This document shows, one piece after another, positions 16,876-20,816 of a stretch of DNA of 64,000 nucleotides. This DNA comes from Lyophyllum atratum. Taxonomy: Eukaryota > Basidiomycota > Agaricomycetes > Agaricales > Lyophyllaceae. Location: contig JACGCN010000001.1 of NCBI GenBank assembly GCA_014905825.1, forward strand, positions 930,001 through 994,000. Reading direction: 5' to 3'. Below the pieces are notes generated by a model. That model had not been told where the DNA came from. It searched no databases and saw nothing but the letters and a program-made list of their open reading frames with translations. How positions within the stretch are numbered: position 1 is the first letter of the stretch; each line of letters starts with the position of its first letter. Made by a program: the position numbers and the translations under genes.

Positions 16876-18795
16876 CTATGAGAACATCGAGTCGTATCTC
16901 TTCAAGCAAGAGTACCACTCGTAATCTATAAATGCGTAAGTAGTAGGGCACAACCAACATTATCTCAAGGGAACTAACCAAAATTCTGCGTCTCGTCGCA
17001 CCAGCACTTTCCTCTCGTATGGGAGTCTCCTTGTGGACAATGTTGAAAAGGTTCATGCCGGTATCCTGTGGAACATTTCAAATCCAGAACGTAGGTTTAC
17101 AGGGAGACGAAGTTTACCTATGTCGTTGAAGAAGTGCTGCATGAGAGTGAGAGTGAGTGATCATCAGAGCCCGACATAAATGGCCGACTTACGATTTGCT
17201 CTTTCTTCGCAAAAAGCGCCGCACCGATACTATGCACTGGGGCATCTCCCCAACGCTGTGAAAATGTTACATCAGATGGCAAAGGTGAGCACACGTAGCA
17301 CCTACTTCGTAGTAAAACCCGCCTTTGCTATCAAGGTGATCGAAGAATTTATTGTACGCTTCTCCACGCCATAAATCCAGGTCGGCAATCTCAAAGTTGC
17401 TCCAGACTAGGAATCGATTAATGGATGGAAAGTAACGAGGGAAACAGGCTTAGCTCACAGTGGCAGCGATTATAGGTTGCACCACCATCGTCCGAAAGGA
17501 ACGACATAGCGTTATCAGGCGAGACTAAGTGAGGGTTTTCGGCAGGTGAAGTCTGGGAATGACTTCAATATAGGCAGCACTTTGACCAATTCAGCAAACA
17601 CGTACTTTTGACGGCATCCCACAGGGTTGGTATAGTTGCCTCGTACTCATAGAGCGACACAGTGAAGCCTAGGGGCTCAGACTAAGCATCTTGTTCGATA
17701 TGAGAGTGGTTCAACGAACCGTAGACCTTATTTTGATCCTGCATGATCAAGAATGGATCGTAGTCGAGGTCACAGAAAAACTTGACATCAGGTCTTGGGC
17801 AAGCCTTAGTATATGGGCGCGGAATATATATGATGCCACCTACTCGACTCTAGAACAGACACGTAAGGCGACTGGTTGACTGTCATACGGAGAAAAGAAC
17901 ATACCTCCAATAATATTTATACGGTTTCAGGAGTTCGTGTTTGTAGAAGAACTGTGGATGTATTGATAAGAATGACAGAGAGCCACGATGTGAAACGCAC
18001 TCCGGAATTGAAACGACACATATTACGATATCTGGGATAGGTTAGCTCACATATGATGTATCTCAGAACACACTCACGGAACACTGCCTGAAATCCGAGA
18101 GCGTTAGTTTATCGAAAGAGAGCTTCAGACTATTCCATACCTCCATAAATAACGCCATTTTTAGACATGGTTTCACGAGCCGCTGACGCTTTGGTCTCAT
18201 CTATGGAGTCAGGCTGGATCCAGTGTTCCTTCGGTATGAGCCCAAACTCGACTTTCGCGTCGGTCAACTTCGACACCCGTCTGGATATAGAGAAATTAGG
18301 AGCATGTCGTAAACTTAGAGAGAGATGCGTCACTTCTTGAACCCTTCATCAAACTCTTCTTCATTGAGGAAGACGTAGGGGTACTGGAATTTTTTGTTGA
18401 ACCGGTCTTCCATCTGCTTCATACTGCTGACGACCCCGTTCAAGTCAGAGTTACGTGCTAAGGTTGCATAGGTTAGAGCGCAATGGATACCAATTTGATG
18501 TAACACACCGAGTAAAACAAAGACAGCATTGGCTTTGCGCGGCGGTGGTGTGGTCGCATTCGTCTTGATATAGTACTCTTCGGGGATGGGGACTTTGTAT
18601 GGTGGCTGCTTGTTGCCGACGATCTTGTCTTTAATATGGGAGATGGAGGTAACTTGGCCATAGTTCTCGTTGGAGAAGCTGAGAATGTAATGCAAGCTGA
18701 TCTGCGGGGCGCTGAGCTAGGTGTTCATGAAGGCAGGCAAATAAACACACGATTACACCCAGCACCAGGAGCGCGTAGCGCATTTGGGCCATCAT
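16876..18795 (-). CDS. Alpha-1,2-mannosyltransferase, GT15 (KRE2/KTR family), copy 1
   Basis: Type II Golgi enzyme that adds alpha-1,2-mannose from GDP-mannose to O- and N-linked glycans. It starts MMAQMRYALLVLGVIVCLFA, a short cytosolic tail and membrane anchor. The lumenal domain reads NAVFVLLARNSDLNGVVSSM, QMEDRFNKKFQYPYVFLNEE, FGLIPKEHW, PYRNMCRFNSG, then YYWRVEPDVKFFCDLDYDPF, all conserved GT15 blocks. The WRVEP motif is assembled through a 6-nt exon at 17844-17849. The end reads FQHCPQGDSHTRGKC then FDYEWYSCLKRYDSMFS across the last intron, giving the stop at 16876. It sits head-to-tail with a second GT15 gene 196 bp upstream of its ATG. The two share intron positions, so they arose by tandem duplication. 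Confidence 0.93.
17844..17849 (-). other. Six-nucleotide micro-exon in GT15 copy 1
   Basis: On the minus strand the exon ending TATTGGAG is followed by donor GTATGT (intron 17850-17904). Then acceptor TCTAG, the six bases AGTCGA, donor GTAGGT (intron 17794-17843), acceptor CCCAAG and ACCTGATGTC. Joined, the codons read W-R-V-E-P-D-V, the invariant GT15 motif. Without the six bases the Val and the Glu codon are lost. Confidence 0.85.
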
Positions 18796-18990
18796 CTTGG
18801 CGGTGGAAAATGAGGGAAAGCAATGTGAGTGAATGTGTGTACCCGTCACTGTGCGCAGCTTGTTGCTAACTAGCCACGTGCTCTACTTATCGACCTCGGG
18901 TTTAAGGTTAGGGTTCGTCATCATACATCACTTGCCATCTCGAGATCTCATCCATCATTCGACACTTAAATTCCTACAATCGGTTCATAG

Positions 18991-20816
18991 TTATACAAAT
19001 AGATTCTCGTATCGCTTTATACATGAATTTGGAGCGTAATCTACCGGGCATGTTTAGATTGCGTTACCGAGAACAACAGGTCCACTCACCAAAACTGTCA
19101 TTTGGGTCGCAAGAACACCGTCCTTCAGACCAACTATCGCCTGATGGGCAATGTTGGAAGGGATCGTGTCGGTATCCAATGTCTCGGAAGAAATGGACCT
19201 GCTCTCTTCGTGCAAAAAGTGACGCCGCGATGCTGTGAACAGGAGCATCACCCCAACGCTGCGACGGCATATGAGTGACACGTCAATCAACATGAGCATT
19301 GTCATCACATGCCTCGTAATAGAATCCGCCCTTGGACTCTAGGTAATCGAAAAACGTTTGATAGGCCTCACCTCGCCAGAAATCCATATCAGCGATTTCG
19401 AAATTACTCCAGTCTGCTCCTGCGTCAGTCGTACAGTTTAGGAGTCATAGATGCCGTTCACGCACAATGGCATAAGTTGTAAGTCTCGCCGTCATTATCT
19501 GACAGAAAATTCATCGAGTTGTTCGGCTGTACATATTGGGGGTATTCGGCGATGAATTCTAGGAAATAGGGTATTAGTCAAAGGAACCAATTCGAAGCGA
19601 TCATTCGGACCTTTCACCGTGGACCACAGAGTGGGTATAGTAGCTTCCCACTCGATGAGAGATATGGTGAAGCCTTGTAATGAAAAGGTTAGATCGATTG
19701 TCAGATAATGCTACCCGGGAGACAACGTACCGTAGACCTTATTGCCATCCTCCATGTAGAGGAAGGGGTCGTACGTAACATCACAGAAAAATTTCACGTC
19801 GGGTCTGTGAGTTTACATACGTTCAGAAGTTGCGCAGCGACGAAATGAATCAAAAGTCAAACTCACTCGACTCTGAGTGAGCACGGTTTAATAGATGACA
19901 TAGCGCGGTTAGAGTTCAGGAACTAGAGACTGACCTCCAATAATAGCGATACGGTTTCAATAGCTCGTGGTGGAAGAAGAACTTCATAAGTAGCTCCCGT
20001 GAACACACTGATCCACATGTTAAAAATAGACGGACTCACACCAGAATTGAAACGGCACATATTACGATATCTGCTTGGGAAATGAGCCATCCTTATCACC
20101 ATATGCAAGTGGAGAAGAACGTACGGAACACTTCCTGTGAACACAAGACTTTAGTGACTGTTCGTTCGAGAAAAATTGCATGCTCACCTGCGTATATGAT
20201 ACCCTGCCACATCATTCTTCGGCGCCCGTCCGCAGCTTTACTCTCGTCAATCCAGTCCGGCTGGAACCATTGTTCTCTTGGTATCAACCCGAAGAATATG
20301 GGGGCGTCCGTCAGCACGGAGACTCGCCTACACATCTTCTCAGTTCAGTGTTAAATTTTCGGATTGGAATGAAAACACCTTTTGAACTCCTCTGTGAAAG
20401 GCTCTTCGTTGAGTAGCACCCATGGGTAGTTGTGGCGCCTGTTGAACCGATCCTCCATCTGCTGTATACTGGAGACCACGCCCGCTAGGTCGCTGTTCCT
20501 ACAAAGAAGAACGAATGTCGCATTTGCTTGTCGCTGGTATGAAAAGTCTGTACTGTTCCGCTTCGGTTCTCGTAAACCGACGACACTCGTATCGATCACC
20601 AGTTCGGTGGCATTGGATAAGATATCTAAAGGTTGCCCAGGTGTCCAAAATTGTTCAGAGATGCTTGAACTGAGCCTCTCGTAGTCAAGACCGAGAAAAA
20701 AATGTAAGCTCAACTAATTAGCACGTGGCACGATTAGCGTAGTTCACGCGACGAGATAGAGAAAATCTAACCACGACAACTAGTACGACAGTGATGAATC
20801 GTCTAGGTGTGAGCAT
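18991..20816 (-). CDS. Alpha-1,2-mannosyltransferase, GT15 (KRE2/KTR family), copy 2
   Basis: Tandem paralogue of the neighbouring GT15 gene, with the same predicted reaction and Golgi location. It starts MLTPRRFITVVLVVVV (membrane anchor), then FLGLDYERL. The conserved blocks are ATFVLLCRNSDLAGVVSSIQ, QMEDRFNRRHNYPWVLLNEE, FGLIPREQW, PYRNMCRFNSG and WRVEPDVKFFCDVTYDPF, and further on WSNFEIADMDFWRGEAY and ESKGGFYYE. It ends RCSCDPNDSF, intron, DYAPNSCIKRYENLFV-stop (18991). It contains the same 6-nt exon (19867-19872) as copy 1. The ATG at 20816 was chosen because it directly precedes the hydrophobic anchor. Sequence differences are spread along the protein, so the duplication is not recent. 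Confidence 0.92.
19867..19872 (-). other. Six-nucleotide micro-exon in GT15 copy 2
   Basis: Minus-strand order: ...TTGGAG, donor GTCAGT (intron 19873-19934, 62 nt), acceptor ACTCAG, exon AGTCGA, donor GTGAGT (intron 19805-19866, 62 nt), acceptor CTCACAG, ACCCGACGTG. The join reads W-R-V-E-P-D-V. The six bases are identical to the copy 1 micro-exon although the flanking introns have diverged. Confidence 0.85.

What the first reader, a model, noticed from the sequence alone, without database searches (positions are those of the whole stretch)
17794..19934. A 6-nt micro-exon, identical in two tandem GT15 genes, supplies the R-V-E of the WRVEP motif
Seen: in both mannosyltransferases the conserved W-R-V-E-P-D-V can be read only if six bases AGTCGA (17844-17849 and 19867-19872) are spliced as a separate exon between two introns of 50-62 nt. 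The micro-exon and both splice phases are the same in both copies, while the flanking introns have diverged. The motif is invariant in GT15 and contains an active-site Glu, so skipping this exon would remove two residues of the active site without shifting frame. That makes it a possible on/off switch for enzyme activity. The conservation argues that the micro-exon predates the duplication.
Basis: partly seen in the sequence, partly recalled or inferred. Interest (0 to 1): 0.8.

Follow-up and report, generated by a model that had tools for sequence, protein, structure and literature searches.

The report
Ancient six-base exon in mushroom mannosyltransferases
Two neighbouring mushroom enzyme genes each carry a real six-base exon that completes the metal-binding site of the enzyme; it looks old and routinely spliced in, but automatic gene models often seem to drop it, so public protein records of several mushrooms appear to lack a catalytic residue, and nothing found here shows that the fungus itself uses it as a switch.

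Summary
Confirmed: both tandem GT15 genes (minus strand) need AGTCGA (17844-17849, 19867-19872) as a separate 6-nt exon. No single GT-AG intron restores WR[VIL]EP; exactly one two-intron solution exists in each copy, and shuffled introns give a 6-nt rescue in 3 and 4 of 4000 trials. The exon gives the last base of Arg, all of Val and two bases of the Glu aligned with the Mn2+ ligand of Ktr4. Both genes also have a 10-nt exon, not in the finding. Two further paralogs keep only the downstream intron: here the micro-exon is a 53-nt exon split by one extra intron. The public Lyophyllum atratum record is this same gene minus exactly V-E, with intron left in beside the 10-nt exon. Of 281 relatives seen, 26 lack exactly two residues here and 2 more are garbled; all 28 are among 124 Agaricales genome models, 0 of 85 short-contig (cDNA-like) proteins and 0 of 72 models of other orders. 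They lie on both sides of the copy-1/copy-2 split. Best reading: an old, constitutively included micro-exon that annotation misses. The on/off switch is unsupported, not excluded. Fungal micro-exons down to 1 nt are published.

The parts
17844..17849 (-). 6-nt micro-exon AGTCGA of copy 1 (exon 8 of 16)
19867..19872 (-). 6-nt micro-exon AGTCGA of copy 2 (exon 7 of 13)
17850..17904 (-). intron upstream of the micro-exon, copy 1 (55 nt, GTATGT...CTAG); absent from paralogs C35/C73
17794..17843 (-). intron downstream of the micro-exon, copy 1 (50 nt, GTAGGT...AAG); same position and phase as an intron in C35/C73
19873..19934 (-). intron upstream of the micro-exon, copy 2 (62 nt, GTCAGT...CAG)
19805..19866 (-). 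intron downstream of the micro-exon, copy 2 (62 nt, GTGAGT...CAG)
17905..17951 (-). 47-nt exon before the micro-exon, copy 1, ends in Trp plus AG of the Arg codon
19935..19981 (-). 47-nt exon before the micro-exon, copy 2
17720..17793 (-). 74-nt exon after the micro-exon, copy 1 (last base of Glu codon, then PDVKFFCD)
19731..19804 (-). 74-nt exon after the micro-exon, copy 2
18078..18087 (-). 10-nt micro-exon GCAGTGTTCC of copy 1 (G-S-V-P), not in the finding
20125..20134 (-). 10-nt micro-exon GAAGTGTTCC of copy 2 (G-S-V-P), not in the finding
17118..17136 (-). 19-nt exon of copy 1, without counterpart in copy 2
16876..18795 (-). copy 1, GT15 mannosyltransferase gene, 16 exons; one single-base frameshift in exon 11 in this assembly
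18991..20816 (-). copy 2, GT15 mannosyltransferase gene, 13 exons, 387 aa, open throughout

Best explanation
A constitutively spliced micro-exon of old origin in intron-dense Agaricales GT15 (Kre2/Mnt1-type) mannosyltransferase genes. An intron in the Glu codon (GA|R, phase 2) is shared with the paralogs C35/C73; a second intron 6 bases upstream in the Arg codon (AG|A, phase 2) is present in copies 1 and 2 but not in C35/C73, and cuts a 53-nt exon into 47 + 6. Both small introns (50-62 nt) carry their own splice signals and are, I infer, recognised by intron definition and removed one after the other, so the 6-nt exon needs no exon recognition of its own. The mature mRNA then encodes the full Mn2+-binding W-R-V-E-P-D. 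Shown: anatomy, paralog comparison, presence of the residues in all cDNA-like relatives seen, exact two-residue loss confined to genome models among the proteins seen. Inferred: order of splicing, constitutive inclusion in this species, annotation error as cause of the loss.
For: Unique two-intron solution in both copies and low chance; recovery by spliced alignment; C35 and C73 carry TGGAGGATAGA inside one 53-nt exon with the same downstream intron and phase; P0004 (88% identical to copy 2; contig of 1495 nt, 337 nt left over after the CDS, too little for 12 introns) and P0098 (nearest row to copy 1 by path) contain WRVEP; 85 of 85 short-contig proteins have WR[VILMF]EP, 28 of 124 Agaricales models lack or garble it, 0 of 72 models of other orders; 26 of 26 losses are exactly two residues, V-E in 25 and I-E in 1, against the nearest complete relative; P0128 (Armillaria nabsnona, lacking V-E) is 99% identical to P0153 (A. 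solidipes, with V-E); P0003 equals copy 2 but for the V-E loss and an 18-residue piece of unspliced intron after the 10-nt exon.
Against: No RNA reads of this genome could be examined. The protein collection is clustered at 90% identity, so a minor skipped isoform would hide inside a cluster whose representative includes V-E. That short-contig proteins are cDNA is inferred from length: 55 of 85 leave under 600 nt for introns, 30 leave more. Copy 1 intron 8 has a weak donor and acceptor (ranks 41 and 45 of 47). In the second version of gene 1 on contig C6 the aligner did not place a 6-nt exon, joining the neighbours over a 107-nt intron amid five frameshifts; the hexamer AGTGGA there was read by eye. 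Genomic DNA of other fungi was not available, so the micro-exon in other species is inferred from protein gaps.
Confidence: 0.88

Rival explanations
1. Regulated skipping: the exon is left out under some condition, giving an in-frame W-R-P-D protein without the Mn2+ ligand, an enzyme off-switch or a catalytically dead isoform.
For: Skipping is frame-neutral in both copies and a single GT-AG pair would do it; 26 public models have exactly that kind of sequence; a microexon switch is reported for Xlr2 in Trichoderma (PMC11121469, passages); 12 of 193 alternative splicing events in an Ustilago maydis EST study were exon skipping (PMC2219887, passages).
Against: 0 of 85 short-contig proteins lack V-E; models lacking or garbling V-E are also often odd at the 10-nt exon (12 of 28 against 6 of 96); flanking splice sites of copy 2 are mid-range; exon skipping is described as very rare in fungi (PMC5006051, passages).
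Confidence: 0.06
2. The public W-R-P-D proteins are true genomic variants: in those species the six bases are deleted.
For: The gap is clean and exactly two residues in 26 of 26.
Against: P0003 is this very gene, and its genomic DNA has the six bases between splice sites. Rows with and without the residues are well-supported sisters on the tree, for example P0128/P0156 (100/100), P0124/P0147 (100/98) and P0074/P0018 (100/92), and P0128 and P0153 are 99% identical.
Confidence: 0.02
3. Chance: the hexamer is an accident and the true junction lies elsewhere, or both genes are non-functional.
For: Copy 1 has a one-base frameshift in exon 11 in this assembly.
Against: No alternative junction among those enumerated gives the motif; chance about 1 in 1000 per copy, and both copies have it at the homologous place; copy 2 is open over 387 codons.
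Confidence: 0.02

Closest known systems
One-nucleotide exon of CYP621A in Fusarium (PMC12940212; part 1 of 3 of the text read)
   Same: Fungal micro-exon inside a conserved motif, between introns, needed to assemble the protein and hard for automatic annotation; supported there by an intronless relative and by SRA reads
   Different: 1 nt and frame-breaking if lost, in an ascomycete P450; here 6 nt, frame-neutral, metal-binding motif of a GT15 enzyme in Agaricales, no reads examined
Micro-exons (2-10 aa; shortest exon 6 bp) of Phanerochaete chrysosporium P450 genes (PMC1184071; passages read)
   Same: Same size, basidiomycete, frequent introns of 45-55 bp
   Different: Not tied there, in the passages read, to a catalytic motif or to conservation across species
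Xlr2 switch-like microexon of Trichoderma virens (PMC11121469; passages read)
   Same: Tiny fungal exon inside an essential motif, missed by the JGI model, conserved in the genus
   Different: 20 nt, glucose-dependent inclusion reported from RNA-seq; no such evidence here
Kre2/Mnt1 and Ktr4 (GT15; PDB 1s4n, 5a07)
   Same: Copy 2 aligns over 306 of its residues with Kre2 (E 1.6e-114) with WRVEPD in register; Ktr4 Glu262 of EPN binds Mn2+ (PMC4546622, passages)
   Different: Here the codon of this Glu is split between a 6-nt exon and the next exon

Membership tests
Micro-exon (internal exon of about 30 nt or less) | very short internal exon between canonical splice sites | tested here: met
   AG|AGTCGA|GT in both copies, GT-AG introns of 50-62 nt
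Micro-exon (internal exon of about 30 nt or less) | included in mature mRNA | tested here: inconclusive
   no reads of this genome; 85 of 85 cDNA-like relatives include the residues
Switch-like (regulated) microexon | condition-dependent inclusion and skipping | not testable with these tools
   needs RNA-seq or RT-PCR; the annotation pattern argues against it
Switch-like (regulated) microexon | skipping keeps the reading frame | tested here: met
   skip junction gives W-R-P-D-V in frame in both copies
GT15 (PF01793, Kre2/Mnt1) | profile match over the curated cut-off | tested here: met
   exons of both copies match singly, up to 89.9 bits, cut-off 25
GT15 (PF01793, Kre2/Mnt1) | E-P-D/N motif with Mn2+-binding Glu | tested here: met
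   motif of copy 2 in register with Kre2 and Ktr4; metal role from PMC4546622, not tested for these proteins
GT15 (PF01793, Kre2/Mnt1) | alpha-mannosyltransferase activity | not testable with these tools
   no assay

The most novel reading that the evidence does not exclude
Skipping of the 6-nt exon is a conserved, regulated event in Agaricales that turns both Kre2-type enzymes into folded but metal-less, catalytically dead isoforms, tuning cell-wall mannosylation; some of the W-R-P-D models in public records would then be true transcripts.
Probability: 0.05. Interest if true: 0.75.

Novelty: new member of a known kind. Interest (0 to 1): 0.36.

Why it matters
It is a clean test case of an exon near the lower size limit inside a catalytic motif, in two paralogous gene lines, with paralogs that show the unsplit state. 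Its practical weight is the likely annotation effect: 26 of the 281 public proteins seen lack exactly the residue pair that holds the metal ligand, so such proteins could be misread as dead enzymes, and the same fault may hit other short exons of Agaricales. If skipping were real and regulated, it would be a one-step switch of enzyme activity.

Tried and rejected
Single-intron readings of the motif: none in either copy. A longer alternative exon in copy 1, AGTCGAGTAG with a downstream donor, would put TAG in frame (sequence). Identity of the hexamer as an argument for special conservation: rejected. My first hand-made joins were out of frame: copy 2 exon 5 and the first two exons of copy 1; they were replaced, and the spliced alignment settles both. 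Paper search for micro-exon with Cryptococcus and intron gave 0 papers; in the listed parts of searches (20, 12 and 8 papers) I saw no GT15 micro-exon. No structure prediction was run: the Kre2/Ktr4 structures already place the residue.

Counting rules: class 'incl' needs W[RK][VILMAF][EADQ][PSGT] anywhere, 'skip' needs [FYVW]W[RK]P.[VIA]. So P0010 (WRVAP) counts as included, and the long or fused models P0001, P0002 and P0006 count once each. A strict count of WR[VILMF]EP gives 85 of 85 short-contig, 70 of 72 other-order (the two others WRMDP and WRLDP) and 93 of 124 Agaricales proteins. The first count (120 proteins) was 103 incl, 15 skip, 2 other. Only 281 of several thousand hits were seen, since each search lists 120. 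'Odd' at the 10-nt exon is a pattern test; some of the 6 odd complete models look like natural variants, for example P0030 and P0116. The short-contig and order groups were sorted by me from the tables; orders are recalled, except Lyophyllum and Schizophyllum. The tree holds 78 rows of my choice, with all 26 skip and both 'other' rows; its root is a midpoint. Its count of 7 label changes for 'skip' leaves out 21 ungrouped rows and is not used here.
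Full report
Anatomy. Both genes lie on the minus strand. Copy 2 (20816-18991) assembles into 13 exons and 387 codons without interruption; copy 1 (from 18795 to the stop ending at 16876) into 16 exons with a single-base frameshift in exon 11 of this assembly. Exon lengths of copy 2 are 45, 335, 140, 10, 31, 47, 6, 74, 63, 93, 101, 169 and 50 nt; copy 1 has 140, 10, 31, 47, 6, 74 and 63 in the same place. 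All introns of the two genes are 46-62 nt. An aligner that scores protein similarity and simple splice signals, run against cDNA-like relatives (P0004 for copy 2, P0162 for copy 1), finds the 10-nt and 6-nt exons in both copies unprompted.

Is it more than chance? Among the GT-AG introns of 35-150 nt between the two neighbouring exons no single intron yields WR[VIL]EP in either copy. Two introns do so in exactly one way, with AGTCGA, in each copy. With dinucleotide-shuffled interiors a 6-nt rescue occurs in 3 of 4000 and 4 of 4000 trials. Leaving the exon out gives W-R-P-D-V in frame, again in exactly one way.

What the exon encodes. It gives the last base of Arg, Val, and two bases of Glu. 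In copy 2 this Glu aligns with the Glu of the EPD motif of Kre2 (1s4n) and the EPN motif of Ktr4. In Ktr4, Glu262 binds the Mn2+ ion, and five of the yeast Kre2 family enzymes have EPD while the rest vary (PMC4546622, passages). A protein without V-E should therefore be unable to hold the metal; that is inference.

Origin. The genome holds further GT15 loci. On contigs C35 and C73 the sequence TGGAGGATAGA is unbroken in a 53-nt exon, and the following intron has the same position and phase as the intron after the micro-exon; the 10-nt exon is there as well. So the micro-exon is a 53-nt exon cut by one extra upstream intron, gained in the line of copies 1 and 2 or lost in C35/C73; the tree does not place C35 firmly. 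C75 and C80 are a distant branch with WRLDTD and no intron there. Contig C6 carries a second version of the tandem pair, 93-95% identical. Its gene 2 shows the same 6-nt exon; its gene 1 has five frameshifts, the aligner placed no 6-nt exon in it, and the hexamer AGTGGA at the expected place was read by eye.

Age. Over the 232 aligned residues compared, copies 1 and 2 agree at only 18 of 57 fourfold sites, and none of eight paired introns aligns better than the 95th percentile of shuffles. Identity of the six bases is thus what the amino acids and the splice sites demand, plus one Val codon (6 of 13 shared Val codons agree). The age argument rests on position and phase, and on other species.

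Other species, through protein gaps. Three searches gave 281 different proteins (each lists 120 of its hits). One, P0003 from Lyophyllum atratum, is copy 2 itself: it differs by the loss of V-E and by 18 residues of unspliced intron after the 10-nt exon, so the window is from that species or one hardly distinguishable. In all, 26 proteins lack exactly two residues at this site (25 V-E, one I-E, against the nearest complete relative), and 2 more are garbled there. All 28 are among the 124 genome models from Agaricales; 0 of 72 models from other orders and 0 of 85 short-contig proteins lack the residues (Fisher p 9e-7 and 1.3e-7; the rows are related, so these p values are too small). These records fall on both sides of the supported split (97/99) that parts copy 1 from copy 2: 8 on the copy 1 side and 20 on the other, counting the 2 garbled ones. 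I conclude that the micro-exon exists in both gene lines across Agaricales and predates their split. Whether other orders lack the upstream intron or are only better annotated is open.

Artefact or isoform? The Agaricales models that lack or garble V-E are also odd at the 10-nt exon in 12 of 28 cases, against 6 of 96 for the complete ones; 0 of 85 short-contig proteins are odd there. A failure at two tiny exons together is what a gene predictor would do; 16 of the 28 are regular at the 10-nt exon, so this is a tendency. Armillaria nabsnona P0128 and A. solidipes P0153 are 99% identical and differ in having V-E. Of the 85 short contigs, 55 leave under 600 nt beyond the coding sequence, less than about 12 introns of 50 nt would need, and all 55 have WR[VILMF]EP; the other 30 leave more room, and all have it too. 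Two limits remain: the collection is clustered at 90% identity, which would hide a minor isoform, and no reads were seen.

Mechanism. Fungi are thought to use intron definition (PMC2219887, passages), intron retention is their commonest alternative event and exon skipping very rare (PMC5006051, passages). Two 50-62-nt introns with mostly ordinary sites can each be recognised as a unit: among 47 introns of four GT15 genes, copy 2 donors rank 23 and 34 and acceptors 17 and 23; copy 1 upstream intron ranks 8 and 19, downstream intron 41 and 45. The weak downstream intron of copy 1 would by this logic favour retention, which brings an in-frame stop at once, rather than skipping. Since machinery on both sides of a 6-nt exon would collide, I expect one intron to leave first; which one is unknown. 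This paragraph is inference beyond the cited facts.

Known kinds. A 1-nt exon in Fusarium CYP621A, with read support and the same annotation trouble, is published (PMC12940212, part 1 of 3 read). Exons of 6 bp occur in Phanerochaete P450 genes (PMC1184071, passages). A regulated 20-nt microexon is reported in Trichoderma Xlr2 (PMC11121469, passages). The present case is a further member, with a telling place in the enzyme and a wide trace in public records. I found no report of a GT15 micro-exon in searches (open-access library; capped listings of titles and abstract starts only).

Noticed in passing
18078-18087 and 20125-20134: A second, 10-nt micro-exon (G-S-V-P) in both copies, also in paralogs C35 and C73 and so apparently older than the 6-nt one; garbled in a number of public models.
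   Followed up: yes
17459-17552 (copy 1, exon 11): One-base frameshift against relatives; the second version on contig C6 is not shifted at that place but has five frameshifts elsewhere, so pseudogene, allele or assembly error cannot be told apart.
   Followed up: partly
L009 (contig C6, 57 kb), L010/L011, L012/L013: GT15 loci come in close pairs on different contigs (93-95% for C1/C6 and C35/C73; C75/C80 not measured), as if both haplotypes of a dikaryon were assembled in part.
   Followed up: partly
19312 (copy 2, intron 11 donor): Apparent GC-AG intron (GCATGT) in this copy; the C6 version has GTATGT at the same place.
   Followed up: no
18458-18508; 17066-17117 and 17137-17192: Three introns of copy 1 have no counterpart in copy 2, so intron gain or loss continued after the duplication.
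   Followed up: partly
   Followed up: partly
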